DNA of 52,400 nt from a virus: IMG/VR virus record IMGVR_UViG_3300036389_000002, positions 1-52,400 of that record; one strand, given 5' to 3'. The notes under the pieces are model-generated. The model was given only the letters and a program-made list of their open reading frames with translations, made no database searches and was not told where the DNA came from. The first letter of the stretch is position 1, and each line of letters opens with the position of its first letter. Positions 2,741 through 51,389 of the stretch are shown here, one piece after another. The position numbers and the translations under genes were made by a program.

Positions 2741-2741
2741 T

Positions 2742-9152: not shown

Positions 9153-9198
9153 ATCCTCTTACGATGCCATGTTCTTTGAAATGGCATCGTAAGAGGAT
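9153..9198. repeat. perfect 18-bp inverted repeat in the sheath 3' part
   Basis: Arms at 9153-9170 and 9181-9198 are exact reverse complements around a 10-bp spacer. The frame is lost here: EMA is followed by a stop, while NGIVRGLQ in another frame continues the protein. The arrangement suggests a template-switch or slippage event rather than a terminator, since no T-tract follows. Confidence 0.8.
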
Positions 9199-9331
9199 TG
9201 CAGCGCGGTTCGGCGCAATGGGACAGCACTAACAGCAATATTCTTGCTGGTCGGCTAAAACACATCTTACAATTCCAACCCAACAACATGGTGGAAATTA
9301 TGGAACTCGCTGTGAGCATAGGAGGTTAATT

Positions 9332-9865
9332 ATGGCATCACCATCAACTTATGAAACAAGAGGTCAGTGGGCATGGTCAATTATTGGTGGTAGCGGAACA
9401 CCTGCTATAGCAACGGGAACAGCTTCAGAACTCACCATTGAAGGGTTAGAGCGTGAGATTGACCAAGATAGACGTCCTGGGGCAGGAGGTGCGCTAAGCT
9501 ATGGCGGAGACTTTAACCCCATCACTGCAACGGTTAGTTTAATGAGCATCACCGATGGAGTTAGAAGCGCAGCGATGGAATCTGTGTGCTCAAATGCAAC
9601 AATAAATGCATCTGCTATTTTTCAAAATGTAAGAGATGCATGCGATATCGGTACGTACTCCATATCTATGCGCGGTATCCTGATTAAGTACCCTATTGGG
9701 TGGAAGTTCAGTACAGATAAAGGGGAGGCGGAGTTAGTACTAGGTGTGAACTATCTCACAGAAACATTTAAAGGTAAAACATTTACCTATAACCCTGATG
9801 AAATGGAATGGATATGGAATGGCACAAACTTATGGGCAAACCGGAAGTTAGCTTTGGGGATGTAG
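9332..9865 (+). CDS. tail tube protein (Mu gpM-like)
   Basis: A 177-residue protein directly after the sheath gene, preceded by ATAGGAGGTTAATT. It has a beta-rich pattern: GTASELTIEGLEREIDQDRRPG, GGDFNPITATVSLM, and a C-terminal LGVNYLTETFKGKTFTYNPDEMEW strand. This place and size are those of the inner tube of contractile tails, whose hexamer rings stack inside the sheath. Family features are weak at sequence level, but the order sheath, tube, chaperone, tape measure is firm. Confidence 0.75.
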   Translation: MASPSTYETRGQWAWSIIGGSGTPAIATGTASELTIEGLEREIDQDRRPGAGGALSYGGDFNPITATVSLMSITDGVRSAAMESVCSNATINASAIFQNVRDACDIGTYSISMRGILIKYPIGWKFSTDKGEAELVLGVNYLTETFKGKTFTYNPDEMEWIWNGTNLWANRKLALGM

Positions 9866-9910
9866 AAATTGCGTTGATTGCAATTCATCAGAATTGAAAA
9901 AGCCTCGCCT

Positions 9911-9949
9911 TAAGCTATACTGCGTGTCTTCAGACCGCAATATGGCTTA
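9911..9949 (+). terminator. long hairpin after the tail tube gene
   Basis: TAAGC at 9911-9915 and GCTTA at 9945-9949 close a stem of about 17-19 pairs with a few mismatches, and CTTTTTG follows about 10 bases later. It may be a terminator or RNA-processing site separating tube from chaperone expression. Confidence 0.45.
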
Positions 9950-9998
9950 ACGCGATTCCTTTTTGTAGCCAGCTTTTATAAGTAGTGATCGCTTCATC

Positions 9999-10020
9999 GT
10001 TATCGTAACGTTATGGTAAC
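9999..10020. repeat. 22-bp palindrome, copy 5
   Basis: Arms GTTATC and GGTAAC, core GTAACGTTAT (one change). It lies in the gap between tail tube and chaperone genes, 44 bp before the next ATG. Confidence 0.9.
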
Positions 10021-10064
10021 CAGAAATCAATTTATAATGACTGTAGCTGTTTGTATATAGTGAC

Positions 10065-10637
10065 ATGACTACTGAGGCGATCGCATCCACAAACTCCGTT
10101 GTTCTTAGAGACGGTTCGCTCATTTTTACTGCTAAACCTTTGTGTGCATGGGCTTATTTCCTGTTTATTGAAAAATCACAGATGCCCGGAGAAACTGGCA
10201 ATCCAAGAGCAATAGGTTCTAGATTAGCGCAGGCATGGTTGTTTAGCGAAGCTTACACACTAAATAGCGAACCACTTACTGAAATACAATTGAATATCCT
10301 TAGTTTGACAATGCGCGAAGCTAACAGATTGCTGGTTCCTTTAACAAGCATTTCTGTAACAATTGATATACTGGATGATGCGGATACATTAGCAGAGTCT
10401 ACACACGTAAAGATTAAAGATCATGAGTATACGATGCTTCCAATTCCGTGGGAAGCGGCGGATAAGTGGTTAGCGGATGTTAGAGTTAGTGTTGCTCAAG
10501 CTTATAAGAATATGGCTAAGGGATATATTCGCCGTGATGGCGATCGCATCACTGATGATATGTTTAACAACCCTGAAATCTTAGGAATACAGGAGGGCAA
10601 GCTCTTTTTTGAGTGGGTAAAGTATGCAGTGAACTAA
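10065..10637 (+). CDS. tail assembly chaperone, first frame (Mu gp41-like position)
   Basis: A 190-residue protein lying between tube and tape measure, where contractile-tail phages encode the chaperone that holds the tape measure during tail assembly. It has SLIFTAKPLCAWAYFLFIEKSQM near the N-terminus, a helical middle (LNILSLTMREANRLLVPLTSISVTIDILDD), and a C-terminus with EGKLFFEWVKYAVN. No motif proves the function. The -1 frame overlaps its last 25 bases and continues for 63 codons, the usual chaperone arrangement. Confidence 0.6.
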   Translation: MTTEAIASTNSVVLRDGSLIFTAKPLCAWAYFLFIEKSQMPGETGNPRAIGSRLAQAWLFSEAYTLNSEPLTEIQLNILSLTMREANRLLVPLTSISVTIDILDDADTLAESTHVKIKDHEYTMLPIPWEAADKWLADVRVSVAQAYKNMAKGYIRRDGDRITDDMFNNPEILGIQEGKLFFEWVKYAVN

Positions 10638-10804
10638 TACCTGAGCGGTTAACCATCTTGAGAGTGTGCAAGTATATGGGCTGGTCGCTAGTGGATTTAC
10701 AATATTTTAAAGATTTGCATCACTTGAATGAGTGGCTTATTGAAATCATCAAAGAGATGAAGCGAGAGCAGCAAGAAATAAACAAGACTAAAAATCGCCT
10801 TTAA
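10613..10804 (+). CDS. tail assembly chaperone, second (-1) frame
   Basis: A 63-codon open frame (from GTG 10613) in the -1 frame of the preceding gene: VCKYMGWSLVDLQYFKDLHHLNEWL, then a Lys/Glu-rich helix. The pattern resembles the short second part of gpG-GT-type chaperones made by frameshifting. A T6 run at 10605-10610 precedes the overlap, but a TGA in the -1 frame at 10610-10612 means a slip would have to occur after it, for example at GTA AAG. No classic slippery heptamer is visible. Independent starts are poor, so frameshifting is favoured. Confidence 0.5.
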   Translation: MGKVCSELIPERLTILRVCKYMGWSLVDLQYFKDLHHLNEWLIEIIKEMKREQQEINKTKNRL

Positions 10805-11116
10805 GCCCTCTATTTTTTTAAAAATGATGAATCATACCATCATGTATATTAAAACCTTTTAAAAATGATTTTCGCGGCGTTGGCAGGGTAGATAGTCTCT
10901 AAGAGTGATTGTGATTTTCTAAAATATCCCTTTTTTAAATTAGAACGTAGCTAATAATTGTGGCTTACGTTTTTTTCTTTTGTTTTTCTTTTTTATTTTT
11001 CTTAATTTTCAACAGACTATCTTTCAAAAAATTTCGCGTGCGCTTTTATGTGTGTATTTTCTGCTTGTTTTTTTTTGAATGTTTTCTTTGAATATAGTAG
11101 AGCGGGGGAATCAACA

Positions 11117-11202
11117 CTTCCGTAAATTAGAAATCCTCATTTACGTGAATTAGGATTCCCTGTTTACGTAAATGAGGAATCCTCCGTTACGTAAATGAGG
11201 GG
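11117..11202. repeat. four 22-24-bp direct repeats before the tape-measure gene
   Basis: The gap 10805-11202 is A/T-rich with poly-T runs. Its end carries four imperfect direct repeats of a unit like TTACGTAAATGAGGAATCC. The copy at 11163-11186 matches 21 of 24 bases at 39192-39215 inside the replication gene. Nothing else in the gap is recognised. Confidence 0.6.
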
Positions 11203-11211
11203 TTGCGCAAA

Positions 11212-13563
11212 ATGGCGAAACAGTTGATATTACAGGTTTTGGCGGATGTTGGTAACGCCATCGCTGGGTTGAAAAATGTTGGCGGCGCTTTAGATGACAT
11301 CTCCAAAAAAGCAAAGGACGTTGGTGGAAAAATGACGGACTTTGGAAAAAGTCTTGGTGCTGTGACCACTGTCCCAATCGTCGCTGCTTTAGGGGCTGCA
11401 ACTAAGACGGCGCTAGATTTTGACACCCAAATAGGTGATGCTGGGCGTGCATTGGATTTGCAAGGAGCTAAACTGGACAATTTCAAAAAGCAGATATTAG
11501 AAACTGCGCCAGCATTAGGACAAATGCCGACTAAGTTTGCGGAGATTGCCACGGAAGCTGGAAAGCTAGGTATAGCTGGCGATAAGGTAGTGGAGTTTGC
11601 TCAGTTGGTTAGCAAAGGTGTGATGGCGACAGGTGCCGATGCCATTGAAATGTCAAAAAACCTTGCAGCGCTTCAAACCATTACTGGGTCATCTGCGCAG
11701 GATATGGAGAAGTTGGTTGCTGCCGCTAACAAGGTAGATGATGCCATTGGTGGTTCCACGCCTGAAATCTTAGAATTTGTCCGCCAAACTGCTGCCGCAG
11801 GTAAGCTTGTGAATATCAACACAAAGGAACTGGCAGCGTACGGTGGCGCGATGCAAAGCTTAGGCATTCAAAACGGCGTAGCTTACCGTACTATGGGCAA
11901 GCTCATCACCACACTAGCTGCACCACAAGTGCTATCCAAAAACCAAATTGAAGGACTCAACGCTTTAGGTATTAGTGCGACCGAAATGGCGGCGAAGATG
12001 AAGGAGTCTGGTTCAGGCGGGGTGCAATTCTTCCTTGACAAAGTTAAATCTATTGCCACAACTGACCCACAGCGAGCGCTGGGTGCAGTTAAAGAACTAA
12101 TTGGTGCGGACTTTGGTGACGAAGTTTTGACAAGTGCTTTAGCCGTAGATAAATTTAAAGAAGCACTAAAGTATGCGGGGGATGATGCCGGGAACCTTGC
12201 CAAATTTCAAGCAGAGGTGGAAAAGAAAACCCAAGGAGTTGCAGGTCAAATTCAAGTCTTTAATGCTAACCTGGCTCAAGTAGGTATAACTATTGGTTCT
12301 GCCATCCTTCCTGCGCTAAATTCTTTACTCAGTATTTTGCTGCCAGTCATTCAAGCATTTGGGAAATTTGCAGAAGCTAATCCGGTATTGGTGCAGATAG
12401 GTGTGGGTGTTGCGGGATTGGTTGCTGCGATCGCACCTCTTATCATCATCATTGGCTCACTTATCACCGCAGCTGGTAGTATAGGCGCGGTAATGGGAAC
12501 AATTGCTCCAATACTTGCTGGGGTAACAGCGGCTGTTGGTGGTGCAGTTGCTGCTGTTGTCTCAGTACCAGGGTTGATTACTGTAGCGATTGCTGCGGCA
12601 GTCGCAGCTGTGGCATACGGAGTTTATCAAATCGTTACCCATTGGGATTCCATCAAAGCTGGCACAGCAGCAGCCTGGGACGCGGTTGTTGCTAAGATTG
12701 GGCAAGCAAAGGATGCGCTCTCGCAGAAGTGGACAGAACTGACAACCGCAGCAAGCACAGCATGGACAAATATCCAAAACACCATAAACCAAGCGGGTGC
12801 TAACATTCAAGCAAAGTGGACAGAACTCCAAACCAGCGCAGGTACAATCTGGGCTAGCATTCAAGCCCAGGTGCAATCAGCAGGGACGGCTATCTCACAA
12901 AAGTGGGTAGAGGTGCAAAATGCAACGAGCGCAGCGTGGACGGGCATTGTTGCTAAAGTCCAAGAAGGTGTAAGTACTGCAACCAAGGCGCTATCTGGTC
13001 TACCTGCTGCTTTCCAATCTTCCATGTCCAGCGCCTACAATGTTGTCCGCAATACGATGGCGCAAATCATCAAAGCAATTACGGACGCAGTATCTTCAAT
13101 GGTTAACGCGCTCAAGAACGCTGGCGCAAGTATGATGAATACCTTAGCTGATGGAATCAGAGGTGCCGCCAGTGCCCCAGTAAACGCGGTACAAGGCGCT
13201 ATGAGTGCGGTAAGGTCATATTTACCAGGAAGCGACGCTAAGCTAGGTGCGTTGTCAGATTTAACGGCATCTGGTCGCGCACTCTTGCAAACATTCGCCG
13301 ACGCGATGATGAGTAATGTTGCTCCAGTCCTTAAAGCTGCTTCTTCGGTTGCAAGCGCTGCGATGCCTAGTGAGCAAAGAGCGCCAATGTTGATGGGAAA
13401 TAATTCCTCATCCAGCATCACCATTAACTTTCAACCAACTGTTAACCTTTCAGGGTCTGCAAATCAGGATGATGGTAGAAAGTTACTTGCGCAAATGGAA
13501 AAATGGTCGAGTGAGATTTTGGATCTTTTAGATCGCAATCGTAGCAGAAATAATCGGAGGTAA
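11212..13563 (+). CDS. tail tape measure protein
   Basis: A 783-residue protein starting at ATG 11212 (GAGGGG upstream). Domains in order: a short basic N-terminus with GNAIAGLKNVGGALDDISKK; a tape-measure core at about 60-250 (TQIGDAGRALDLQGAKLDNF to AYGGAMQSLG); hydrophobic segments at about 390-480; three W-rich helical repeats of about 20-25 residues at 490-590 (KWTELQTSAGTIW and similar); and a C-terminal helical part. It sets tail length and probably takes part in membrane passage of DNA. It is the longest plus-strand gene and lies between chaperone and hub genes, as expected. Confidence 0.9.
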   Translation: MAKQLILQVLADVGNAIAGLKNVGGALDDISKKAKDVGGKMTDFGKSLGAVTTVPIVAALGAATKTALDFDTQIGDAGRALDLQGAKLDNFKKQILETAPALGQMPTKFAEIATEAGKLGIAGDKVVEFAQLVSKGVMATGADAIEMSKNLAALQTITGSSAQDMEKLVAAANKVDDAIGGSTPEILEFVRQTAAAGKLVNINTKELAAYGGAMQSLGIQNGVAYRTMGKLITTLAAPQVLSKNQIEGLNALGISATEMAAKMKESGSGGVQFFLDKVKSIATTDPQRALGAVKELIGADFGDEVLTSALAVDKFKEALKYAGDDAGNLAKFQAEVEKKTQGVAGQIQVFNANLAQVGITIGSAILPALNSLLSILLPVIQAFGKFAEANPVLVQIGVGVAGLVAAIAPLIIIIGSLITAAGSIGAVMGTIAPILAGVTAAVGGAVAAVVSVPGLITVAIAAAVAAVAYGVYQIVTHWDSIKAGTAAAWDAVVAKIGQAKDALSQKWTELTTAASTAWTNIQNTINQAGANIQAKWTELQTSAGTIWASIQAQVQSAGTAISQKWVEVQNATSAAWTGIVAKVQEGVSTATKALSGLPAAFQSSMSSAYNVVRNTMAQIIKAITDAVSSMVNALKNAGASMMNTLADGIRGAASAPVNAVQGAMSAVRSYLPGSDAKLGALSDLTASGRALLQTFADAMMSNVAPVLKAASSVASAAMPSEQRAPMLMGNNSSSSITINFQPTVNLSGSANQDDGRKLLAQMEKWSSEILDLLDRNRSRNNRR

Positions 13564-13564
13564 C

Positions 13565-14596
13565 ATGGCAGTAAAGCGTCCTATTATTAGCTATGTGTCT
13601 ATCAACTCTAGTGTTGGGACTACTAGCATTGGAAACTATATCAGCGATTTTTCATATACCGAAGAACCTGGCTTTGGTCGCTCACATTGTGAATTTACCC
13701 TTGACCCTAGCGCAACGCTTATTCCTCAAATTGGTGATGCGGTAGAAATTCAAGTGAAATATTCTTCTGATCCTGCCCCCAATAACATCACCACAGGAAC
13801 CCATAAGGTAAATGACGTTATTTATGACCATGCCCGCAAGGTTTACAACATTGGCATGAGTGCATTTGATTTTAATGGTGGTGCACTCAATGAAATTGGG
13901 TACAGCTATGACAATGCTAGTATCAGAGCAATTGTAGATACCCAAGCAACACAACTTAGTTTGACTGTCAATAATTTAAGCAACATCTCGGGTGCGATCG
14001 CAGGGTTTCAAACCCAAAACTCATCCAGTCAAACCGTTTACAGATTCTCAGGTAAAACCCGCGCTGAAATCTTAGAATCCCTTGCCCAGCAATATGGATT
14101 TTTGCTTAGAGTTAAAGCTGGAACCATTTTCTTCTATGATTTTTTAGATTTTGAAAATGCTTCTCCAGTACTCACGCTTTCACCAACCAGTATTGCTAGT
14201 GATTCAACTGCGCAGGTTCGCTTTTCTACTGATGGAGTTTATAGCGCAGTGCGTGTTCAGTACATGAGTGGTGGCTCTCCTATCACCAGTGACTTAAGTA
14301 TTCAGTACGCTAATGTGACCAATCGCATTCTTAACTTGCAATCAAAAGGAATCCTTTATAACGGAGAAAGCGCAGCGCGGTTCGCCTATGGGGCTGCTAA
14401 AGACAATAACAAAGAACAACAGGTTTTTACTGCTACGACTGAAGGCAACTGGCTTTATGTCTTGGGTGCGATCATCCAACTTTCTGGGTTTAATCAGGGA
14501 AATCATAAATACTTTCTTCGCAGATGCGTTCACACACTTAGGCAATCTGATTCATGGCGTACCATGATAGAATTGCAGCGAGTATTTAACATTTAG
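13565..14596 (+). CDS. late control D-like tail hub protein
   Basis: A 343-residue protein that resembles P2 gpD (phage late control D, gp27-like hub) in length and pattern: an N-terminal beta domain (SYTEEPGFGRSHCEFTL, GDAVEIQVKY), a central region with YRFSGKTRAEILESLAQQYGFLL, and a C-terminal LQRVFNI end. In contractile tails this trimer forms the central baseplate hub carrying the spike. It starts 1 bp after the tape-measure stop with GGAGG upstream, so expression is probably coupled. Confidence 0.7.
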   Translation: MAVKRPIISYVSINSSVGTTSIGNYISDFSYTEEPGFGRSHCEFTLDPSATLIPQIGDAVEIQVKYSSDPAPNNITTGTHKVNDVIYDHARKVYNIGMSAFDFNGGALNEIGYSYDNASIRAIVDTQATQLSLTVNNLSNISGAIAGFQTQNSSSQTVYRFSGKTRAEILESLAQQYGFLLRVKAGTIFFYDFLDFENASPVLTLSPTSIASDSTAQVRFSTDGVYSAVRVQYMSGGSPITSDLSIQYANVTNRILNLQSKGILYNGESAARFAYGAAKDNNKEQQVFTATTEGNWLYVLGAIIQLSGFNQGNHKYFLRRCVHTLRQSDSWRTMIELQRVFNI

Positions 14597-14599
14597 CTG

Positions 14600-14621
14600 G
14601 TTACCGTAACGTTACGATAAC
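14600..14621. repeat. 22-bp palindrome, copy 6
   Basis: Arms GTTACC and GATAAC, core GTAACGTTAC. It begins 4 bp after the gpD-like stop and ends 21 bp before the gpU-like ATG. Confidence 0.9.
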
Positions 14622-14642
14622 CATTAAAATGAGCGCAAAACT

Positions 14643-15035
14643 ATGTCTCTTCAATCTGGCAGCTTTGGCACTATCACCTTTGCTGTACCGGAAGTCTTAA
14701 AGATTGCGGTGCAGCAAACATCAGGATATGTTGAAATTCCGATTATCAATGGCTTCTCTCGTGTTCACTGGATATCTGACGAGCTTGATAGGATAAAAGT
14801 AGACTTTAAATTTAGCTCTATGCCTGGTGTGGGCTACAATACAAGCGCTAAAGCTCGGTTAGACTTGCTCCGCGCTGAAAAAGGTTCTACCACGCCTAAA
14901 GCGCTTACGATAGCAGGCGAAAACTTTGGTAATTACTTAGTGAAATCTATCAACTGGGAGGTGATATCCCAGGCGGGGACTATGAAACCTATAGTTGTAA
15001 CTGCTCAGGTAGAATTTCTAGCGAATCCAATTTAA
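14643..15035 (+). CDS. P2 gpU-like tail protein
   Basis: A 130-residue protein with a gpU-like pattern: SFGTITFAVPEVLKIAV near the N-terminus, HWISDELDRIKVDFKFSS, and a C-terminal VTAQVEFLANPI strand. gpU is a tail protein in P2-like phages. It is the last intact structural gene. GGGAGG and an ATG at 15052 follow, but that next gene is interrupted within a few codons. Confidence 0.65.
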   Translation: MSLQSGSFGTITFAVPEVLKIAVQQTSGYVEIPIINGFSRVHWISDELDRIKVDFKFSSMPGVGYNTSAKARLDLLRAEKGSTTPKALTIAGENFGNYLVKSINWEVISQAGTMKPIVVTAQVEFLANPI

Positions 15036-15038
15036 GGG

Positions 15039-15060
15039 AGGCAGTAATAAGATGAATAAT
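15039..15060 (+). pseudogene. truncated start of the next phage tail gene and island junction
   Basis: After the gpU stop, GGGAGG and an ATG at 15052 look like the ribosome site and start of a further phage gene (spike or baseplate expected). After about three codons the sequence becomes, on the other strand, the AGYDSREKII end of a cyanobacterial antitoxin. The left boundary of the inserted or rearranged island is therefore near 15055-15060. Confidence 0.5.
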
Positions 15061-15309
15061 TTTCTCCCTGGAATCATAGCCAGCCTCAACCAACGCTTGC
15101 TTTAATCCCTGTTCCAATTGTTTTGGTGACGCACTTGTCCCCTCCAAAAATGGGGAGGGTTCCAAGCCCCACGATTCATCATGGGGTAAAACAGATCCAC
15201 CCAAAAACCCTCCCCATTTTTGGTACGTGTTAGACCCCCGTGACATCAAAGTACGCTGTTGATATTCACCTTGTGCATCAATCTTCCCCGTGCCTTGGAT
15301 TGCTTTCAT
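15058..15309 (-). pseudogene. antitoxin-like gene interrupted by a palindromic element
   Basis: The start MKAIQGTGKIDAQGEYQ and the later QLEQGLKQALVEAGYDSREKII match the beginning and end of small cyanobacterial antitoxin-type proteins that often precede PIN toxins. Between them a palindromic repeat (15144-15223) replaces the normal middle. The frame stays open and runs on into the antisense of the gpU gene, ending at 14989, so the last 18 or so codons are not native. Function is doubtful. Confidence 0.45.
15144..15223. repeat. 80-bp nested palindromic element
   Basis: Eighteen-base arms at 15144-15161 and 15206-15223 are perfect reverse complements; a second CCCCA/TGGGG hairpin lies between them. 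It resembles short mobile palindromes (MITE or REP-like) of filamentous cyanobacteria and interrupts the antitoxin-like frame. Confidence 0.7.
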
Positions 15310-15314
15310 TCGGT

Positions 15315-15734
15315 TTAAACCTCCGGCATAATGACTGGAATGGGTTGATTCTTGTGCTTTCGATAGATGAGGAAGTCACTGTCTAAGGTCAAGACTTCGC
15401 TGCTAGGATACAGCTCTGCCATTCGTACTAAACTTGCATCGGCGAAGGAGATGGGAACGGAGCGATACCGGGTTAATAGCTCGGTGATTGACTCAACTTC
15501 CAAGTTAAACTGAAAAGCTACCAAAATTTGCTGACTTTTTAGTAATCCAACTAAAGTTTCTCGCCCATTATTCACACGCTGCAATAAGAACCATGCTTCT
15601 GAAAGCACTGCTTCACAGGAGAGTAGTGGAGGTTGGATTGTAGCAAGTTCTGTCGTTACCCAGGAGTGATGGTGATCGCGGCGATCAATAAGGGCTATGA
15701 GGGAACCAGTATCAAGGAGAACTTGCTGACGCAT
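15315..15734 (-). CDS. PIN-domain toxin, VapC type
   Basis: A 139-residue PIN ribonuclease. The acidic active-site set is visible: LLDTGSLIALID (first Asp), SCEAVLSEAW (Glu), SFADASLVRMAE (Asp) and LTLDSDF (last Asp). VapC toxins cleave tRNA or other RNA when released from their antitoxin. Its start overlaps the stop of the DUF2281 gene at 15734, so the two form a toxin-antitoxin operon. Such pairs are common in cyanobacterial chromosomes and plasmids and stabilise the region. Confidence 0.85.
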   Translation of the reverse strand: MRQQVLLDTGSLIALIDRRDHHHSWVTTELATIQPPLLSCEAVLSEAWFLLQRVNNGRETLVGLLKSQQILVAFQFNLEVESITELLTRYRSVPISFADASLVRMAELYPSSEVLTLDSDFLIYRKHKNQPIPVIMPEV

Positions 15735-15967
15735 CAGGTACCATATCCTTTCATGTACTCAGGATTAGTAGAAAGATCTCCAGGACCAGAGCCTGCACCG
15801 ATATAGGCTTGGGCTGTTTCTAAGAACGATTGAACTGGTTCTATGTTCGCGGATGGTAATCTTTGCCGCTTGCTTTTGAGAAACTCTGCAAAGTCCAGAA
15901 CCTCTTGTTGCTCGGCAGGAGACAGTGTTTGGAGTGTTTCAATGACTTGTTGTTGAATGGGTTGCAT
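15734..15967 (-). CDS. DUF2281-type antitoxin
   Basis: A 77-residue protein with the family pattern: IQQQVIETLQTLSPAEQQEVLDFAEFLKSK in the first half (two helices), then a short variable tail. DUF2281 proteins pair with PIN toxins in cyanobacteria and are taken to be their antitoxins. It is upstream of and overlaps the toxin, so it would be made first and probably represses the operon. Confidence 0.8.
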   Translation of the reverse strand: MQPIQQQVIETLQTLSPAEQQEVLDFAEFLKSKRQRLPSANIEPVQSFLETAQAYIGAGSGPGDLSTNPEYMKGYGT

Positions 15968-16397
15968 AGGGAAAATCTTCGTCTAGCATTAAGATCAATT
16001 ATCATGCATGATATAGCAGCGCCGGTAATAGTACACCTGATATCAAAACTGATAACAGTACAGCAGTAAGACAGTAATTGATGGGAGAACTAGACAACAT
16101 GCTGACGTTAGAGAAATCTTTCTCAAGCGATTAAGCAGTTCAACAGAATAGCTCAAATACAGGTAGAAGTATGTTTGTAGAAGCTAGTGAGAAAGAACAC
16201 GAAAAAACTTGAACCCTCTCCCCCTAATACAGCACTGAACACAGACTATCGTATAGAAAAAGTACAGACAGCCTGACAACACTTTTCTACACCTCGTAGA
16301 GAAAGTATCTATACATAGGTTCACAAAATCAGAGTCAACAATATATCTATGCAACGCTGCAAACTCTATGTTGTGTTCGCGTTAGAGAAAGATTTAC
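15968..16397. other. non-coding gap with a remnant repeat
   Basis: A stretch of 430 bp with no supported gene. At 16105-16132 it carries 28 bases matching 25 of 28 at 19158-19185, the 3' end of the 59-codon gene at 19161-19340; read on the minus strand it gives IA-stop-ERFL. It looks like the remnant of a second copy. The rest shows A/T-rich spacer only. Confidence 0.4.
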
Positions 16398-17495
16398 ATG
16401 ACGGTGAAGCGTGCAAAAGGAACCAGTTGTCAATCACGCAGCGTGCCGTCAAGCCAGAGGCTTATCGCCTGTGAAATTGACCTTGAGATTGTTGAACTTC
16501 GTCAGCAAGAATCATACATATCGGCTACTTTTTTTTCATCAAAGAAATTGATCCTGGGGGATAATCAGACAGAAGAAATGTTTTGTCTGTTAACTCACTT
16601 CTTGACAATGACCCCTCTTGCCCTGGTTCATTCCATACGCGAGCGCAAGCAGTTGCGACACCTAGCACCTGTTGACGCTCAACAAAAACTCATTCAAATG
16701 TGGCTGCACGGCAAAGCGACTTTAACTCAGTCAGCTTACCAACGCATTATCACCAAGTTTTTGGGCTTTGTGGGAAAATCCTTACTTGAAGTCACGCTTG
16801 AAGATTTACACGATTACTGGATGCAATTGGAAGCAGAGGGAAATTCTCCAGTCACCCAAGAAAATCACCTGTCGGCTATCAAGTCGCTGTTTTCTTTCGC
16901 TGCCAAGATGGAGTATATCCCCTTTAATGTCGGCTGCGCTCTCAAAGTTAAGAAATCTGACGACAATCTGACTGAGCGCTATTTGACGAAAGTTGAGGTG
17001 GACCTGCTCATTAATGGGGCTACAAACACTCGTGATTTTATCATCTTAACTTTACTTTATAAAGGAGGATTGCGAGTGAGTGAACTGTGTGGGCTTACAT
17101 GGAAAGATTTGATGCCACGCGGCGACGGTGGACAAATAACGGTACTAGGGAAGGGGAATAAACGGCGTTCTATCCGACTGCCATTAGACCTTTGGCAGCT
17201 TCTTTTAAGCTTGAGAGGAAATGCCCCACCTGATGCCCCGGTGTTTATTAGCCGCAAAACCAAAGGACACTTGCACAGACAGAACATTCACCCGATTGTT
17301 AAGGCTGCTGCATTGCGTGCAGGGGTGAATGAAAAAGCTTCGTGCCACTGGTTGCGCCATGCTCATGCCACGCACAGTATTCAAAAGGGTACGAACCTTG
17401 CTTTGATTCAGAAGACTTTGGGACACAGCAATATCGCGATTACTAGTAAATACTTACACGCATTGCCTGATGATAGCAGCGCTTTGTATTTGTAG
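16398..17495 (+). CDS. tyrosine recombinase (XerC/D-like integrase)
   Basis: A 365-residue tyrosine recombinase. A SAM-like core-binding domain covers about 95-185 and the catalytic domain 195-360. Catalytic residues are all present: Arg in GLRVSEL (226), Lys in GKGNKRR (252), HxxR in CHWLRH (317-320), His in LGHSN (343) and Tyr in SKYLHA (352). It cuts and rejoins DNA at specific sites, for integration or for resolving multimers. The first 60-70 residues are atypical and contain a short repeat-like DNA segment near 16435-16470; starts at 16578 or 16608 (MTPLALVHSI) may be the real ones. It is next to a partition locus, which suggests a role in plasmid-form stability. Confidence 0.9.
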   Translation: MTVKRAKGTSCQSRSVPSSQRLIACEIDLEIVELRQQESYISATFFSSKKLILGDNQTEEMFCLLTHFLTMTPLALVHSIRERKQLRHLAPVDAQQKLIQMWLHGKATLTQSAYQRIITKFLGFVGKSLLEVTLEDLHDYWMQLEAEGNSPVTQENHLSAIKSLFSFAAKMEYIPFNVGCALKVKKSDDNLTERYLTKVEVDLLINGATNTRDFIILTLLYKGGLRVSELCGLTWKDLMPRGDGGQITVLGKGNKRRSIRLPLDLWQLLLSLRGNAPPDAPVFISRKTKGHLHRQNIHPIVKAAALRAGVNEKASCHWLRHAHATHSIQKGTNLALIQKTLGHSNIAITSKYLHALPDDSSALYL

Positions 17496-17504
17496 GATAT
17501 TGAC

Positions 17505-45008: not shown

Positions 45009-45299
45009 ATGAAAGAATCAACAAATATTTTAATTTCTGATTTAGAAGCAAAAGCTTTCAAGTCAGATTTCTCTTTGTATCATGAAGTTCTTAACAAAGC
45101 AAGAACAGGTTATTATCATTCCTGCAAAAGTCCTTTATCTGATCCTGAGCAGGCTTTGATTTTGGATTTAGTCAAGCTTGGTTTTTATGATTTGATTATT
45201 AAAGCGCATAGTGGCGCGTATGAAACGACTTTTGCCGAGGCGGATGTTTGGTTGCAATTAGATCTTAGCGTGGTAATGAAGTTTATTAAACAACAGTAA
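45009..45299 (+). CDS. hypothetical protein
   Basis: A 96-residue helical protein: ILISDLEAKAFKSDFSLYHE, LSDPEQALILDLVKLGFYDL. No family recognised. GAGGTG precedes the ATG, and a terminator follows at 45324. Confidence 0.5.
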   Translation: MKESTNILISDLEAKAFKSDFSLYHEVLNKARTGYYHSCKSPLSDPEQALILDLVKLGFYDLIIKAHSGAYETTFAEADVWLQLDLSVVMKFIKQQ

Positions 45300-45323
45300 T
45301 AAACAACAAGCAGTAATATAAAA

Positions 45324-45358
45324 AAGGAAGGTTTTAAACCTCCCTTGTTTTTTTCTTT
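45324..45358 (+). terminator. intrinsic terminator
   Basis: AAGG(A)AGGTTT pairs with AAACCTCCCTT, followed by a T-run. An AAGGCTG/CAGCCTT hairpin at 45368-45386 may end the converging minus-strand gene. Confidence 0.7.
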
Positions 45359-45390
45359 TTATGTATGAAGGCTGTTAAGAGCAGCCTTTG

Positions 45391-46563
45391 CTAAAATCCT
45401 TTTACTGTAACCGCTTGAGTGTTTTTGTTTTGGCGTTTAAGAAAGTTGTGCTCAAGTGCATTAAGAACTCTGTTTTCAACCTGGGCTTTCCCGCCATGCC
45501 ACATGCTGTGAATGTGAGATTCTCCAGTGCTACGGCTATGGTGGTTAAGTTGTTCAGTGACACAGTTCAAAAGTTCCCACGCATTATTGTTGCTAGCCTC
45601 TAAGTGAGATCCAATGCTGGTGTGGTTAGCATAGTTATAATAAGCTTGCCGAACCAGTTTACTTTGGTCATAAAAAGACTTGAGGCGATCGCTGTTTTCT
45701 TCCTTGTCGCCTAGCGTTTCAATCAAGAAGTCTTTAGCCTCCCGATTGCTGATTGGAGTTTGTGCCAACTCATCAATCAACTGACCCAAGTTTGCGAAAT
45801 TGTTCTTTGAACTTTCCAGAATTGCGTTTACTGATGCTTTTGAAAAGGATTGATTATGCCCTATAGAGCGCGTACCAACGTTAACCTTGCGAGTGATACC
45901 GTTGCAGCAAACAAGCCGGACTGCGCTTAATTTAGCGGTAAGCCCTGCGCCATACTCGTGTGAGTTTGTGAGTATCAGGCGACCGCAAATGACATCATCT
46001 GTTCCCATGACTGCCCATGATTCATTAACAACCGCGCTGGCAAACACTAGGCGACCGTCGCGCAGACTGCCTAGGCGTTCCATTTCAATTCCTGCGATCG
46101 CACAAAACTCATCAAAAGCATTCACTACCTCACGATTTTGATAAGGCTGCCAAGTGTCGTTAGTAACGCCAAAGAGTAGCCCTGTATCTCCCCTATACAC
46201 TGCTTGCTGCTGCGTATTGAGAAATTCCATGTTTTTCCCGTATTTCATCAAAGATGTTTCAGTTTCCCAATTAAGCCCTGCGTGCTTAAGCTTCTCGTCT
46301 AAGCTCCACTCTGACTCAACTGCGACGCCCACTCCCTTGTAATAAGCATCGTTGATCATGCCTTTGTAACCATTTTGCTTAAAGCGCTCTTTAATCTCAG
46401 ATGCCGCTAATTTCACCTTGTCTTTGTCAAAGTGAAAGCCTTGCTCGTATTGCTCATTTTTAAGCGCTTCTGGCTTAAAATCAAACTCTAAGTTAAAGCC
46501 GCCATCTAAAGAAGCGTCTGAAATGCCATGTTCTTCAAAACTCATAGCTGAAATCTCATTCAC
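45391..46563 (-). CDS. DUF932 phage/plasmid-like protein
   Basis: A 390-residue protein (start at 46563 or, with GAGAT upstream, at 46545). About 120-205 carry the DUF932 core: AVYRGDTGLLFGVTNDTWQP, NREVVNAFDEFCAIAG and GSLRDGRLVFASA. The C-terminal half is helical. DUF932 proteins are widespread in phages and plasmids and are mostly uncharacterised. Its promoter has one of the clearest ATGCCC/GGGCAT operators, so it is probably expressed early and tightly controlled. Convergent with 45009-45299. Confidence 0.75.
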   Translation of the reverse strand: MNEISAMSFEEHGISDASLDGGFNLEFDFKPEALKNEQYEQGFHFDKDKVKLAASEIKERFKQNGYKGMINDAYYKGVGVAVESEWSLDEKLKHAGLNWETETSLMKYGKNMEFLNTQQQAVYRGDTGLLFGVTNDTWQPYQNREVVNAFDEFCAIAGIEMERLGSLRDGRLVFASAVVNESWAVMGTDDVICGRLILTNSHEYGAGLTAKLSAVRLVCCNGITRKVNVGTRSIGHNQSFSKASVNAILESSKNNFANLGQLIDELAQTPISNREAKDFLIETLGDKEENSDRLKSFYDQSKLVRQAYYNYANHTSIGSHLEASNNNAWELLNCVTEQLNHHSRSTGESHIHSMWHGGKAQVENRVLNALEHNFLKRQNKNTQAVTVKGF

Positions 46564-46572
46564 TACTTCTTT

Positions 46573-46601
46573 AGTATGCCCATATGGGCATGTATTGTCA
46601 A
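46573..46601 (-). promoter_or_regulatory. early promoter with full ATGCCC/GGGCAT operator
   Basis: TTGACA (46596-46601) and CATACT (46573-46578) on the minus strand, 17 bp apart. ATGCCC-ATAT-GGGCAT spans the spacer and -10. It drives the DUF932 gene with a very short leader. Confidence 0.8.
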
Positions 46602-46630
46602 TGATTTTCTGGCTATTTTTTTATATTATG

Positions 46631-46652
46631 GTTATTGTAACGTTACGATAAC
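46631..46652. repeat. 22-bp palindrome, copy 21
   Basis: Arms GTTATT and GATAAC, core GTAACGTTAC. It ends 8 bp before the ATG of the ParB-methyltransferase gene. It is the last copy; none follows in the terminase block. Confidence 0.9.
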
Positions 46653-46660
46653 CAGGTGAC

Positions 46661-47941
46661 ATGAAAGAGGTTAAATTAACGGATTTAAGCTTTGACCCCA
46701 AGAACGCTAATAAGGGCAGTGAGCGTGGACGTGGGATGTTAGAGGAATCTTTGCAGCAGCTAGGGGCTGGGAGGTCAATAGTTGTTGACAGGAATGGTGT
46801 GGTTATTGCAGGGAACAAGACTTTAGAAACTGCTGTGGAATCTGGGTTTTTGGATGGGATAGAGATAGAGACCGATGGGAGTAAGTTAGTGATTGTTCGT
46901 CGCAGTGATTTGGATTTGGCGACGGATGTTAAGGCAAAGCAGTTGGCAATTTGCGATAACAGGGTAAGCGAGGTTAGTCTTACATGGGATGCCGAGATAC
47001 TTAAAGAAATTAGTAAAGATGTTGACTTGAGTGCGTTCTTTACTTCAGACGAGCTAAGCGACTTGTTCACTGAGGAGGAGGAACCCAACGGCAAGGGAGG
47101 TACAGGCGATCCAGATGCGGTGCCGGGAGCAAAAGAGCTTAGATGTAAGCTCGGTGATATTTGGGAACTGGGCGAACATAAGCTGATAGTAGGCGACAGC
47201 ACTGACTCGGTCATAACTCGGACTTTGCTCGGAGATGAAAAAATCCAATTGATATGGACTGACCCGCCATACAATGTGGACTACGATCCAGAGGAAAGGA
47301 ATTGTAATTTTAGTGAGGAGCGCAAAACCAACCCACTGGGCAAGATTCAAAATGACAAGATGAGCGATGAAGAATTCCGCGCCTTTCTTGACAAAGCTTA
47401 CAGTCGCATGAATGAGGTGTTAGAACCTGGGTGTCCGATTTATATAACTCACGCCGACACTATGGGCCATCACTTTCGCAATGCCTTTGTGGCACAGCCG
47501 TGGAAGCTACAAAGCTGTTTAATATGGCTTAAGAACCACTTTGCTCTTAGCCGCTCCGACTATCACTGGCAGCATGAGCCAATACTTTATGGGTGGAAGG
47601 AGGGGGCGGCACATCGGTGGTATGGCGATCGCACCAAGACAACGATACTAGAATACTCGCCACCGCATTATGATAAGAAAAACTGTGATACTGACGGTTA
47701 TATTCACCCCACCCAAAAGCCAACCTCGCTCATAGAGTTTTGCATTGCCAACTCAAGTAAGGGCGGCGATTTGGTACTAGACCCGTTTGGAGGTTCGGGT
47801 AGCACTTTGATAGCTTGTCAGAACACCAATAGGCGAGCGCGGCTGGTCGAATTAGACCCGCGTTTCGCCAGCGCCATTATTGAGCGTTACGAAACGTACA
47901 CGGGCGACGTTGCCCACAAGATAGGCGAGATAAATGGATGA
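46661..47941 (+). CDS. ParB-like domain fused to a DNA methyltransferase
   Basis: A 426-residue protein. Residues 1-100 form a ParB/Srx-like domain (LTDLSFDPKNANKG, then VVIAGNKTLETAVESGFLDG). Residues 160-426 form an amino-methyltransferase (adenine-N6 or cytosine-N4) of the beta order: DPPY at 201-204 (catalytic), then DPFGGSGST at 374-382 (cofactor binding). It would methylate DNA at an unknown target. The fusion is common next to phage terminase genes. Start is 8 bp after palindrome copy 21. It overlaps the small terminase gene by 8 bp. Confidence 0.85.
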   Translation: MKEVKLTDLSFDPKNANKGSERGRGMLEESLQQLGAGRSIVVDRNGVVIAGNKTLETAVESGFLDGIEIETDGSKLVIVRRSDLDLATDVKAKQLAICDNRVSEVSLTWDAEILKEISKDVDLSAFFTSDELSDLFTEEEEPNGKGGTGDPDAVPGAKELRCKLGDIWELGEHKLIVGDSTDSVITRTLLGDEKIQLIWTDPPYNVDYDPEERNCNFSEERKTNPLGKIQNDKMSDEEFRAFLDKAYSRMNEVLEPGCPIYITHADTMGHHFRNAFVAQPWKLQSCLIWLKNHFALSRSDYHWQHEPILYGWKEGAAHRWYGDRTKTTILEYSPPHYDKKNCDTDGYIHPTQKPTSLIEFCIANSSKGGDLVLDPFGGSGSTLIACQNTNRRARLVELDPRFASAIIERYETYTGDVAHKIGEING

Positions 47942-48455
47942 GGATTTACAGTCTTGGGAAAGGCAAACGGGCGAATCCAATAAGGCGTGGGCGGCGTTCC
48001 AAGTTTTTAGGGACTTGGGCGGCAAACGCACTATAACAGCCGCGCAAGAGGTATTACAGCGCCCAATAGGTTATAGACGGACATTGGAGGAATGGTCAAG
48101 CCGATATAACTGGGTGGCGCGATGTCGTGATTACGACCAGTACATAGACCGTATAACTCGCGTTCAGCGTGAGCAAGTCAAGCGAGACGAGTACGCACGC
48201 AAAGTTGAAGCATACCGAGATGAAACTGAGCGCACAGCCAAGGCGATGGTATCAATGGGCGCACGGGCGATCGCAATCATTCAACGTGAGCTCGCCACGC
48301 GGCTACAGACCCCTGAAGTCCTAAAGTCCAATGAGCTAGCAGGGCTAATGCGAGCAAGTGTCATGGCGGTGGACGTGGGGTCAAAACTTCAGGCTGAATC
48401 TTTGGGTATAGACACTTTAGTGGACACGCTTGCCGATGAGAAGAACCAGCGATAA
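47934..48455 (+). CDS. small terminase subunit (likely)
   Basis: A 173-residue protein just upstream of the large terminase, which it overlaps by 20 bp. The first half has WAAFQVFRDLGGKRTITAAQ and EEWSSRYNWVARCRDYDQYI (DNA-binding helical part). The rest is helical with AMVSMGARAIAIIQRELATR and an oligomerisation-like C-terminus. It would recognise phage DNA and start packaging. Identified by pattern (SR-Y-W-R-x-R-A/D-Y-D) and place. Confidence 0.7.
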   Translation: MDEDLQSWERQTGESNKAWAAFQVFRDLGGKRTITAAQEVLQRPIGYRRTLEEWSSRYNWVARCRDYDQYIDRITRVQREQVKRDEYARKVEAYRDETERTAKAMVSMGARAIAIIQRELATRLQTPEVLKSNELAGLMRASVMAVDVGSKLQAESLGIDTLVDTLADEKNQR

Positions 48456-49335
48456 ACGACGACGTGAAATACTAAATTACGGTGTCAATAACTGGATTGC
48501 CGAGTCAGCTTTGATTAACGCCATCAAAACAACCCGCGTCCCGATCGCCTCCAGCAATGACAAAGAGCGCCGTGCTATAGCTGATAATTTAAAGTTATTT
48601 ATATTGGGCTATGATGAGATGCGCCCAGGTGCGTGGGCAGTTTTAGAACCAAATACGTTTCTAGACTGGAACTGGTCGCATGACCTTATGGTTGAAGAAT
48701 TAATTCTTATAGCGCAGGGCAAGCATAGACGGTTGCTAATGAATGTTGCACCGCGCTCACTCAAATCTCTTATTGTTTCTGTCTTTTTCCCGTGCTGGGT
48801 GTGGATGCGATCGCCTTGGGAGTCGTTTCTCTGCCTCAGCTACTCAACGCCTCTGGCAAATGACCACAGTTACAAGCGCCGCCAGATTATAGAGTCAGCA
48901 TGGTATCAATCACTTACGGATGGGGCATGTGCTTTATCTGATGACCGCAACCGAATTACTGAATTTTCTAACGTCTCAGGCGGCATCATGTATGCGCGAG
49001 GATTGGATGGTTCGGTGACCGGAGTCGGGGGAACTTATATCATCTGCCTTCCGTCACATCAGCATATAACGACATCGCTGGGCGAGTTACCCATAGGCGA
49101 GATAGTCGAGAAAGAAATAGAAGCTGATGTAGCAACTTACAACCATGCCACAGGCGAGGTTGAATGGCAACCAATATTAAGGTACGAGCAAAACCCAGGC
49201 AAAGAAATCATCGAAATTGAACTGGATGATGGAACTATCTTGGAGTGTACTGACGAACATCCTGTGTGGGTGGAAGGTAAGGGCTACGTCGCTGCAAGTG
49301 ACATAGCACCTGGAGATATTGTTCTATGCCTGTGA
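48436..49335 (+). CDS. large terminase N-terminal part fused to the N-half of a split intein
   Basis: A 299-residue product starting at ATG 48436 (a TTG at 48430 is in frame). Residues 1-203 are the first part of the terminase ATPase: MNVAPRSLKSLIVSV is the Walker A, and GVGGTYII leads into Walker B. At Cys 204 (codon at 49045) the intein begins, CLPSHQHITTSLGELPIGEI, with block B CTDEHPVWV. The intein half is 96 residues long and ends with a clean stop at 49333-49335. That length is typical of natural N-inteins (about 100). The HNH gene begins inside its last codons. Confidence 0.85.
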   Translation: MRRTSDKRRREILNYGVNNWIAESALINAIKTTRVPIASSNDKERRAIADNLKLFILGYDEMRPGAWAVLEPNTFLDWNWSHDLMVEELILIAQGKHRRLLMNVAPRSLKSLIVSVFFPCWVWMRSPWESFLCLSYSTPLANDHSYKRRQIIESAWYQSLTDGACALSDDRNRITEFSNVSGGIMYARGLDGSVTGVGGTYIICLPSHQHITTSLGELPIGEIVEKEIEADVATYNHATGEVEWQPILRYEQNPGKEIIEIELDDGTILECTDEHPVWVEGKGYVAASDIAPGDIVLCL

Positions 49336-49589
49336 CAATTAACTGCGCTCATTGCAAGAAGGACTTTCCTGTTAAACCATCCAAGGTTGCAACTGCTAAG
49401 TTTTGCTCAAGGGAATGCAGGGATATCGCGAGGCGTACGCTTGCTGATCGCACTTGCAGTTATTGTGGTGGAACGTTTCGCTCCTCAAGAGATAGCGAAT
49501 ACTGCTCCTTGACGTGTTATTGGACTAGTAGTAGGGAAAAGAACACGCTAACCTGTAGGCAATGCGGAGAGAAGTATTACCGCCCCTGA
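49326..49589 (+). CDS. zinc-finger HNH protein, N-terminal frame
   Basis: An 87-codon frame overlapping the terminase/N-intein stop by 10 bp. It contains three Cys-pair units of the kind NCAHCKKDF...FCSRECRD, TCSYCGGTF...YCSLTC and TCRQCGEKYY. At 49587-49589 it hits a TGA, while the -1 frame continues the same protein, so the HNH gene is probably one gene with a frame change at the CCCC run near 49583-49586. Confidence 0.6.
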   Translation: MPVTINCAHCKKDFPVKPSKVATAKFCSRECRDIARRTLADRTCSYCGGTFRSSRDSEYCSLTCYWTSSREKNTLTCRQCGEKYYRP

Positions 49590-50209
49590 CTCCGGCACAT
49601 GAAGCTAGGAACGGTGGATTCTGTTCCAAAAAGTGTTACGGCTTGTATGAGCGCGGTGATCGCAATCCGCATTACAAGCATGGTCGGCGAGTGCGGTATA
49701 ACGCGCCAAAAAGGAGAAAGAAAAGCGATCCCCGCAAAACTTTTGAGGAAAAACACTCTAAGTCAAAGTGCTTTATTTGTCATGAATTCTTTTTTGTATC
49801 AAACGCTAAGCTCAACTATGCCACAAAATATGGGAAGCGTTTTTTCTGCTCTCAGGATTGCGCTAATGTAGCGCATAGCGATCGCATTAAAGGAGAGGGG
49901 AACGGACGCTATGTGCATGGAAGCTGGCAGACACCATATCCTAGAGAGTTTAATCGCACATTGCGCGAGCAAATCCGAAGCCGAGAGGATCATAAATGTT
50001 TCCTGTGCTCAACACCTGAAAACGGTAAAAAGCTGGACGTGCACCATATCGACTATGATAAGCGAAACAATGACCCATTCAACCTTGTGGCACTTTGCCA
50101 TACTTGTCATGGTGGGTTGCACGGTTCACTTGAGCAAAGAAAACAATGCAGAGAAAAACTGTCAAGTCTGTTAAGCGCAAAGCTGTACCAGACAAAAGTT
50201 ACAACATAG
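49562..50209 (+). CDS. HNH endonuclease, C-terminal frame
   Basis: A frame of about 215 codons. GFCSKKCYGLYERG completes the third Cys unit of the preceding frame. CFICHEFFF...FCSQDCAN is a fourth, and the nuclease core follows: CFLC, KKLDVHHIDYDKRNNDPFNL and CHTCHGGLH (HNH with zinc Cys). It overlaps the C-half terminase gene by 64 bp. It lies between the halves of the split intein and is likely its homing nuclease, or a homing gene that entered the intein. The 5' end is in another frame, so activity is unsure. Confidence 0.7.
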   Translation: MRREVLPPLTPAHEARNGGFCSKKCYGLYERGDRNPHYKHGRRVRYNAPKRRKKSDPRKTFEEKHSKSKCFICHEFFFVSNAKLNYATKYGKRFFCSQDCANVAHSDRIKGEGNGRYVHGSWQTPYPREFNRTLREQIRSREDHKCFLCSTPENGKKLDVHHIDYDKRNNDPFNLVALCHTCHGGLHGSLEQRKQCREKLSSLLSAKLYQTKVTT

Positions 50210-51246
50210 CGACCGCTAACCATAACTACTTTGCCTCTGGGGTGTTGGTGCATAATTGTGACGATCCAAATGATCCAGAACGCAGCGAGAGCGATGCTGA
50301 TCGCGAAGGCAAGGTTAAAAAATTCAGAGCATACTTGACTACCCGCGCCAACGATCCAAAACGAACCAAGTGCATAGTCGTTCAACAACGCACTCACGAA
50401 TCTGATGTTAGCGGGTACATTTACAATGTCATTAACAAGGACTCATCAGAGTCGTACGCATTTCATGTTATTAAGCTACCGACACGGGCAAAAACCTTTG
50501 AAACGATACTTTCACCCATAACGGGCAAGGAACTAGCTGTGCGTCATCCTGGTGACCTATTGCATCCTCATCGTTTTGGAGAGGAAGAAGATGCAGAAGC
50601 AAGACGTGAGCTAGGTGCTTATGCTTATAACGCTCGTCATGACCAGGAACCTGCGCCATTAGAAGGTGGTGTATTCAGCCACGCTGTTTGGAAGACATTT
50701 AAGGAATTGCCGCAAAAATACCAGCTATTTATATCAGGTGACTTGTCCTTTGGCAGTACTTCTAGTACAGCATCATATGTAGCAGTGGGTTTGTTTGCGA
50801 TCGCTTACCCAGATTTCTACCTGGTAGATGTCTTTCATCAACGCTGCGGGTTTAAAGCAGCTAAAAAAGGCATTTTAGATTTGATTGATAGATGGGAACC
50901 TGTTTTGGGCACAGTTGGTGTCAAATTAATAGAAAAAAAAGCATCAGGCAGTGCAGTAATTGAGGATCTGCAAAATGAAGTGCCTGGTGTTGCTGCTTTC
51001 AATCCTGATTCGCATGGGAACAAAACTCAACGAGCAGAGATTGTTGCTCCTATTCTAGAATCTGGGAACTTTTATATTCGCGAAGGCGTTGGTTGGGCAG
51101 AAGATTTTAAAGTTGAATTTATAAAGTTTGGAGTGTATAACACTGATGATTTTGTAGATTGCACCTCTCAAATTGTCATATATGCTCAACAAAGGTTTAG
51201 GCGAAATCGCCATGTTCCTATTGGTTCTTTTGTGCAAGGCATGTAA
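50146..51246 (+). CDS. C-half of the split intein fused to the large terminase C-terminal part
   Basis: A 366-residue product starting at ATG 50146. The first 37 residues are a C-intein: SYNIATANHNYFASGVLVHN carries blocks F and G and ends in HN, with Cys as the +1 residue (50257). Then comes CDDPNDPERSESD, which completes Walker B (YIICDDP) of the terminase. The remaining 329 residues cover the RNase H-like nuclease domain (LFISGDLSFG, a central VALI/IEK segment, and the last Asp near NTDDFVDCTSQ). Joined to the N-part the mature enzyme is 532 residues, normal for TerL. No portal gene follows. Confidence 0.85.
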   Translation: MQRKTVKSVKRKAVPDKSYNIATANHNYFASGVLVHNCDDPNDPERSESDADREGKVKKFRAYLTTRANDPKRTKCIVVQQRTHESDVSGYIYNVINKDSSESYAFHVIKLPTRAKTFETILSPITGKELAVRHPGDLLHPHRFGEEEDAEARRELGAYAYNARHDQEPAPLEGGVFSHAVWKTFKELPQKYQLFISGDLSFGSTSSTASYVAVGLFAIAYPDFYLVDVFHQRCGFKAAKKGILDLIDRWEPVLGTVGVKLIEKKASGSAVIEDLQNEVPGVAAFNPDSHGNKTQRAEIVAPILESGNFYIREGVGWAEDFKVEFIKFGVYNTDDFVDCTSQIVIYAQQRFRRNRHVPIGSFVQGM

Positions 51247-51389
51247 TTATCAAAAGCAAATCTAAAGACGAAAAAATTTATACGCTGATTCACGCGGGAG
51301 CATGGAAGCTCCGAAGTGTGCCTGTCAAGAAATTACCCCTCTTCTGTCACTTTACGTCTGAATGAGAATGAGAATATAACAGAGGGCTA

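What the first reader, a model, noticed from the sequence alone, without database searches (positions are those of the whole stretch)
48436..51246. Terminase large subunit divided between two genes by a split intein, with HNH genes between
N-part (203 terminase residues plus a 96-residue N-intein with its own stop) and C-part (37-residue C-intein with its own ATG plus 329 terminase residues) rejoin at YII/CDDP, the Walker B. A zinc-finger HNH gene overlaps both ends. This is the fractured-gene layout known from split inteins in environmental viral sequences. Two separate proteins would have to splice in trans before packaging can begin. The clean stop, the start codon and the tight overlaps argue against simple decay.
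Basis: partly seen in the sequence, partly recalled or inferred. Interest (0 to 1): 0.78.

Follow-up and report, generated by a model that had tools for sequence, protein, structure and literature searches.

The report
Phage packaging gene split by intein
In a cyanobacterial prophage the DNA-packaging motor gene is cut into two genes that must be rejoined as proteins by a split intein with a broken DNA-cutting gene between them, and relatives show how such splits are re-used and how they heal.

Summary
The terminase large subunit (TerL) is divided at its Walker B motif: 203 residues plus a 96-residue N-intein with its own stop (48436-49335), then a 37-residue C-intein with its own ATG plus 329 residues (50146-51246). 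All class-1 splicing residues are present; the spliced product would be 532 aa. Trans-splicing is inferred, not shown.

One correction: the HNH gene between the halves is broken here by 5 extra bases into 87- and 215-aa ORFs. Relatives keep the same layout with one intact HNH overlapping both halves.

Comparative evidence makes decay unlikely. Both halves are under purifying selection. All 37 intein-carrying TerLs checked have Cys at +1; none of 31 uninterrupted copies does. A 97-98% identical terminase (Brasilonema CT11) has lost the HNH, changed the stop and re-fused into one mini-intein gene; the first 11 HNH codons remain as a scar.

At the same site, other phages carry the HNH in the +1 frame of a contiguous, stop-free intein (14 loci, two in named phages), or put GIY-YIG or other endonucleases in the gap. 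Fractured genes are known (Dassa 2009; MIJ3 PolB). The interchangeable architectures and the overprinted HNH in a splicing intein are the new part.

The parts
48436..49044 (+). TerL N-extein (203 aa, Walker A NVAPRSLKS)
   Evidence: phrog_38 E 1.4e-22; dN/dS 0.08 against CT11
49045..49335 (+). N-intein, 96 aa (Cys1, block B TDEH) and its own TGA stop
   Evidence: TIGR01445 E 3.8e-8 above cut-off; residues; dN/dS 0.15
49326..49589 (+). HNH gene, 5' piece (87 aa, zinc fingers); its ATG overlaps the N-intein stop
   Evidence: phrog_1271 E 8e-9; 55% to P0004 residues 1-86
49584..49597 (+). lesion: 14 nt where intact relative L011 has 9 (frame change inside HNH)
   Evidence: sequence comparison; no local repeat
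49562..50209 (+). HNH gene, 3' piece (215 aa, zinc fingers plus HNH motif VHHIDYDK..N..CHTCH); its end overlaps the C-intein
   Evidence: phrog_1271 E 7e-20; 61% to P0004 residues 85-285
50146..50256 (+). C-intein, 37 aa, own ATG, ends HN
   Evidence: TIGR01443 E 0.0018 above cut-off; residues
50257..51246 (+). TerL C-extein (329 aa, Cys+1, Walker B DD, RNase H-like nuclease) and stop
   Evidence: phrog_38 E 8.7e-37, Terminase_6C; dN/dS 0.086
47934..48455 (+). terminase small subunit, directly upstream and overlapping TerL-N
   Evidence: phrog_6299 E 8.6e-24

Best explanation
The prophage makes two polypeptides, TerL-N/N-intein and C-intein/TerL-C. The intein halves associate, fold into one HINT domain and splice in trans. 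They excise themselves and join YII to CDDP, giving a 532-residue packaging motor with a Cys inside Walker B. The split came with, or from, a selfish HNH homing endonuclease gene that occupies the intein's endonuclease position in another reading frame and overlaps both halves. Its original role was to cut intein-free TerL genes so that the whole N-intein/HNH/C-intein block is copied in. In this copy the HNH is frameshifted, so the element is probably past active homing; the split is kept because TerL needs both halves. Shown from sequence: anatomy, residues, conservation, selection, HNH lesion, re-fused relative. Inferred: trans-splicing, and past homing by this HNH.
For: Exact anatomy. Splice residues Cys1, TxxH, HN and Cys+1. 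Cys at +1 in all carriers against 0 of 31 uninterrupted TerLs. Same layout with an intact HNH in L011, L039, L012, L042, L044, L050. Split loci show no constraint on the intein frame over the HNH (37 stops against 37.4 expected in L009, 39 against 39.6 in L012), as separate genes should. Purifying selection on both halves. In CT11 the HNH is deleted, leaving 11 codons, with TGA changed to TCA and the halves fused in frame. Intein profile best matched by split intein NrdJ-1, E 9e-25; model of the fused CT11 protein matches 8ubs with TMt 0.84 and terminases 8dgc and 3cpe. Uninterrupted TerL alleles exist in the same genome and in L017.
Against: No expression or splicing data. The C-intein dN/dS (0.40) rests on 5 differences. 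The HNH is broken here, so part of the element is decaying and the prophage may be defective. The window contig has no terminal overlap, so phage integrity is unknown. In two relatives a cassette of 5 kb or more sits between the halves; whether those terminases still work is unknown.
Confidence: 0.86

Rival explanations
1. Decaying contiguous intein: an ordinary intein with an in-frame HNH domain broke by frameshifts and stops, and the gene is now dead.
For: The HNH of the window does carry a frame change.
Against: The stop, ATG and overlaps are conserved in relatives whose HNH is intact and in another frame. Both halves are under purifying selection. CT11 restored continuity in frame instead of decaying.
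Confidence: 0.07
2. RNA-level removal (group I or II intron) or frameshift/read-through makes one precursor, so the gene is not functionally split.
For: N and C parts happen to lie in one frame in the window.
Against: Rfam finds no intron. 23 stops lie in the TerL frame. In L011 and L050 the two halves are in different frames. The ends carry intein splice motifs.
Confidence: 0.04
3. The two halves work without splicing, as a two-chain terminase.
For: Not excluded by sequence; no tool result supports it.
Against: The break lies inside Walker B, the splice residues are invariant, and CT11 re-fused through the intein rather than losing it.
Confidence: 0.03

Closest known systems
Fractured genes with split inteins (Dassa et al. 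2009, NAR 37:2560; paper not held, known from later papers and my own knowledge)
   Same: Essential phage-type gene divided at an intein, with a free-standing endonuclease gene between the halves.
   Different: Here the endonuclease is a zinc-finger HNH whose gene overlaps both halves. It is broken in this copy, and relatives show re-fused and overprinted states.
Pseudomonas jumbo phage MIJ3 PolB split intein with HNH (PMC6892783)
   Same: Split intein with an HNH ORF between the halves.
   Different: Host gene is PolB; no re-fused or overprinted relatives are described in the passages read.
AceL-TerL, GOS-TerL, Cat-TerL atypical split inteins (PMC11766414)
   Same: Natural split inteins of terminase large subunits that trans-splice.
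   Different: Their N-intein is 25-37 aa; here the split is at the usual endonuclease position (96 + 37 aa).
ShiLan domain, hidden out-of-frame HNH (PMC11855218)
   Same: HNH read in another frame of a stop-free host gene, as in the overprinted relatives found here.
   Different: ShiLan has no splicing domain. Our relatives carry the HNH inside a class-1 intein. The window copy is split, not overprinted.
Mycobacteriophage TerL1-e Walker B inteins (PMC5050341)
   Same: Intein in the terminase Walker B motif; TerL1-e of phage Gaia splices.
   Different: Contiguous inteins.

Membership tests
Fractured gene with split intein | host gene in two separately translated parts at one intein site | tested here: met
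   own stop, own ATG, 23 stops between them in the TerL frame
Fractured gene with split intein | free-standing homing-endonuclease-like gene between the halves | tested here: met
   HNH phrog_1271; interrupted here, intact in L011, L039, L012
Fractured gene with split intein | protein trans-splicing of the two halves | not testable with these tools
   needs expression
Class 1 intein | Cys1, block B TxxH, terminal HN, Cys/Ser/Thr +1 | tested here: met
   CLPS.., TDEH, VLVHN|C
Class 1 intein | HINT fold | tested here: met
   model of the CT11 re-fused protein (93-97% identical to the window's two parts) matches 8ubs TMt 0.84 and many inteins; window halves not folded together
Atypical TerL split inteins (AceL/GOS type) | N-intein of about 25-37 aa | tested here: not met
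   96 aa
Terminase large subunit | ATPase and RNase H-like nuclease with catalytic motifs | tested here: met
   phrog_38 on both parts, Terminase_6C, TIGR01630
Out-of-frame (overprinted) HNH as in ShiLan | host reading frame open through the HNH | tested here: not met
   23 stops in the window; met in 14 relatives

The most novel reading that the evidence does not exclude
At one terminase insertion site a single intein lineage switches between architectures: HNH overprinted in the +1 frame of a contiguous, splicing intein; fractured gene with HNH; fractured gene with GIY-YIG, another endonuclease or a cargo cassette in the gap; and contiguous mini-intein after endonuclease loss. The dual-coding inteins (about 250 codons read in two frames, with a disordered filler tolerated between the HINT halves) would be a distinct intein class and a route by which a homing endonuclease gene in another frame turns a contiguous intein into a split one.
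Probability: 0.5. Interest if true: 0.8.

Novelty: new variant of a known kind. Interest (0 to 1): 0.64.

Why it matters
How split inteins arise and whether they can revert has been inferred from few cases. Here one insertion site offers near-identical natural pairs: split with an HNH remnant against re-fused (98% identical terminases), and overprinted against deleted (identical exteins). Each step becomes directly testable in E. coli. It also shows that homing endonucleases of unrelated families use the same gap, that cargo of 5 kb or more can sit inside an essential gene, and that annotated phage terminases (Gordonia phage Clown, Synechococcus phage S-EIVl) hide an unannotated endonuclease gene. 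New split inteins with a standard 96+37 split are also of use for protein ligation.

Tried and rejected
Rfam found no intron or other RNA in the window and five loci. No repeat explains the 5-nt lesion. The contig is not circular by terminal overlap, and the split viral genome G101 has no terminal repeat up to 200 bp, so its halves' true distance is unknown. A -1 slip at CCCC before the HNH stop was considered; it would add codons absent from relatives and has no supporting evidence. In-frame filler of overprinted inteins gave no Pfam domain above its cut-off. Pfam missed the GIY-YIG genes that PHROGs found. Dassa 2009 and the preprint bioRxiv 2025.01.02.630785 on non-canonical actinophage inteins are not held, so priority for the overprinted class is unsettled. 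Rooting of the trees was not attempted, so the direction overprinted to split is a hypothesis; only losses of the HNH are directional, from scars.

Full report
Observation. The window is a whole 52.4-kb contig (C15) of an 8.5-Mb cyanobacterial genome, closest here to Brasilonema/Scytonema. It carries head and tail genes at 0.5-14.6 kb and an integrase at 16.4-17.5 kb. The spliced joint would be GSVTGVGGTYII|CDDPNDPERSES, 203+329 = 532 residues. The 810 nt between the N stop and the C ATG contain 23 stops in the TerL frame, so this copy cannot be read through.

The HNH. Its 5' ORF starts with ATG overlapping the N-intein's TGA (ATGcctgTGA) and its 3' ORF runs 64 nt into the C-intein gene. Between them the frame changes: L011 reads CGT GCT CCC TCA CAT where the window has CGC CCCTGACTCCGGCA CAT, 5 nt more. 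The two ORFs align to a single 286-aa HNH in L011 (59% and 56%; 61% and 55%). The gene is therefore intact in relatives and interrupted here. The 215-aa piece retains the HNH motif and is about the size of shorter relatives' HNHs (L084, L098), so residual activity is not excluded.

Conservation of the layout. L011 (viral contig), L039 (second prophage of Brasilonema UFV-L1) and L012 (distant viral contig, C-part 31%) have TerL-N/N-intein with own stop, an intact HNH overlapping both halves, and C-intein/TerL-C with own ATG. A wider scan gave L042, L044, L050, L059, L084 and, in a gene without the terminase match, L096. In these the intein frame over the HNH carries the number of stops expected from synonymous shuffles (e.g. 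37 against 37.4 in L009; 39 against 39.6 in L012), so it is not coding.

Splicing evidence. Cys1, HN and Cys+1 are present in every TerL carrier listed. Block B TxxH was checked by eye in the window (TDEH); the script's pattern picked an earlier match in some rows and found none in L084. The +1 residue is Cys in all 37 carriers and I, V, A, L or F in all 31 uninterrupted homologs (a few of these are overlapping loci of one gene), as expected if the splicing nucleophile came with the intein. Uninterrupted alleles occur in L017 (Scytonema NIES-4073 plasmid, YLL|FDDP) and in the window's own genome on contig C3 (LIL|VDDP). Of 386 cyanobacterial genomes sampled only the window's shows a C-intein at this site. 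dN/dS against CT11 is 0.08 (TerL-N), 0.15 (N-intein), 0.40 (C-intein, 5 differences), 0.086 (TerL-C). The profile of the fused family hits the NrdJ-1 split intein at E 9e-25. The AlphaFold model of the CT11 fused protein has the intein at pLDDT mostly 80-94 and matches 8ubs at TMt 0.84 and terminases 8dgc_E and 3cpe. No Rfam intron.

Healing. Brasilonema CT11 (L014) has a 97-98% identical terminase in one 676-aa ORF. Its linker reads ATG CCT GTC ACC GTC AAT GGT GCC CAT TGT CGA A|ATG CAG AGA: the first 11 codons of the HNH (MPVTVNGAHCR against MPVTINCAHCK) run almost straight into the C-intein ATG, and the N-intein stop TGA is TCA. The remnant's differences are mostly synonymous in the HNH frame (8.5 against 3.5), so the HNH was constrained before it was lost. 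A split gene with HNH was thus converted into a contiguous cis mini-intein.

Other states at the same site. In 12 viral loci (L041, L046, L047, L060, L061, L065, L069, L080, L082, L086, L097 in TerL; L098 in a protein without the terminase match) and two named phages (Gordonia phage Clown, Synechococcus phage S-EIVl), the intein is contiguous and the HNH lies in the +1 frame between the N- and C-intein blocks, with zero stops in the intein frame over 170-267 codons. Synonymous shuffles expect 2.5-17 stops; the chance of none is 0.0002 or less except L086 (0.054) and Clown (0.03). L041 and L085 are one contig and were counted once. The filler has no Pfam domain. In the L047 model residues 281-539 are below pLDDT 50 while the flanking intein parts are about 75-89, so a HINT domain with a disordered insert is plausible; low pLDDT is also what an unalignable insert would give. 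Start codons for the overprinted HNHs are mostly weak and lack a clear Shine-Dalgarno sequence, so how they are translated is open. Split loci tend to be AT-rich (median GC about 0.36) and overprinted ones GC-richer (about 0.55; p 5e-4); this is confounded by phylogeny and L098 (0.33) is an exception. L078 has exteins identical to overprinted L080 and lacks exactly 510 bp (170 codons) of the HNH, flanks 95 and 99% identical: a second clean endonuclease loss.

Other occupants of the gap. L051, L058 and L071 carry GIY-YIG homing endonucleases, and L067 an unrelated HNH on the opposite strand. Scytonema RU_4_4 has a CHAT gene and an nSTAND1-WD40 gene inserted in the HNH slot, with the HNH 3' end left before the C-intein and both TerL halves open. 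In Brasilonema UFV-L1 the halves lie on two contigs with caspase/nSTAND1 and transposase genes beside them.

Trees. On quick maximum-likelihood trees of exteins and of inteins, split against contiguous needs at least 6-7 changes. All the split inteins share a 28-row clade with nested mini-inteins and one overprinted intein, L098 (SH-aLRT 94); many inner branches are weak and the trees are unrooted. Repeated loss of the endonuclease is safe to claim; the order overprinted to split is a hypothesis.

Mechanism. Most likely an HNH gene resides in another frame at the intein's endonuclease position. If the intein frame stays open the intein splices in cis with a filler. If stops accumulate, the gene survives only where the halves restart and trans-splice (fracture). 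Once the endonuclease is lost or deleted the halves may fuse again. The window shows the fractured state with the endonuclease already interrupted.

Known and new. Fractured genes (Dassa 2009), an HNH inside a split phage gene (MIJ3), split TerL inteins of another split type (AceL, GOS, Cat) and out-of-frame HNH in a non-splicing insertion (ShiLan) are published.

Noticed in passing
L041, L046, L047, L060, L061, L065, L069, L080, L082, L086, L097, L098; L160 (Gordonia phage Clown), L161 (Synechococcus phage S-EIVl): HNH endonuclease encoded in the +1 frame inside a contiguous stop-free intein frame; in the two named phages it is not annotated.
   Followed up: yes
L034 1608-7471 (minus strand): CHAT-domain gene and nSTAND1-WD40 gene inserted in the HNH slot between intact terminase halves of Scytonema RU_4_4: conflict-system-like cargo inside a split essential gene.
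   Followed up: partly
L035 1581-2396 and L016 3245-4333 against L039 1274-4180: Brasilonema UFV-L1 holds two different split TerL inteins in one genome, which raises the question of cross-splicing.
   Followed up: no
L051 3475-4395, L058 2832-3536, L071 4112-5035, L067 4303-4965: GIY-YIG endonucleases, and an opposite-strand HNH of another family, in the gap of fractured TerL genes.
   Followed up: partly
L037 2925-3764 and L038 484-1746: Viral contig whose TerL halves lie about 3.8 kb apart only if the contig is circular, with several small genes between them.
   Followed up: no
window 45200-51250: About 6 kb (MTase, TerS, TerL) is mostly 88-99% identical to CT11 apart from the HNH; similarity stops sharply at the TerL stop and left of about 45.2 kb, so the packaging module seems to have moved as a unit.
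   Followed up: partly
window 1-17500 and 46600-51250: Head and tail genes at one contig end and terminase at the other, without terminal overlap; prophage or phage-plasmid state unresolved.
   Followed up: no
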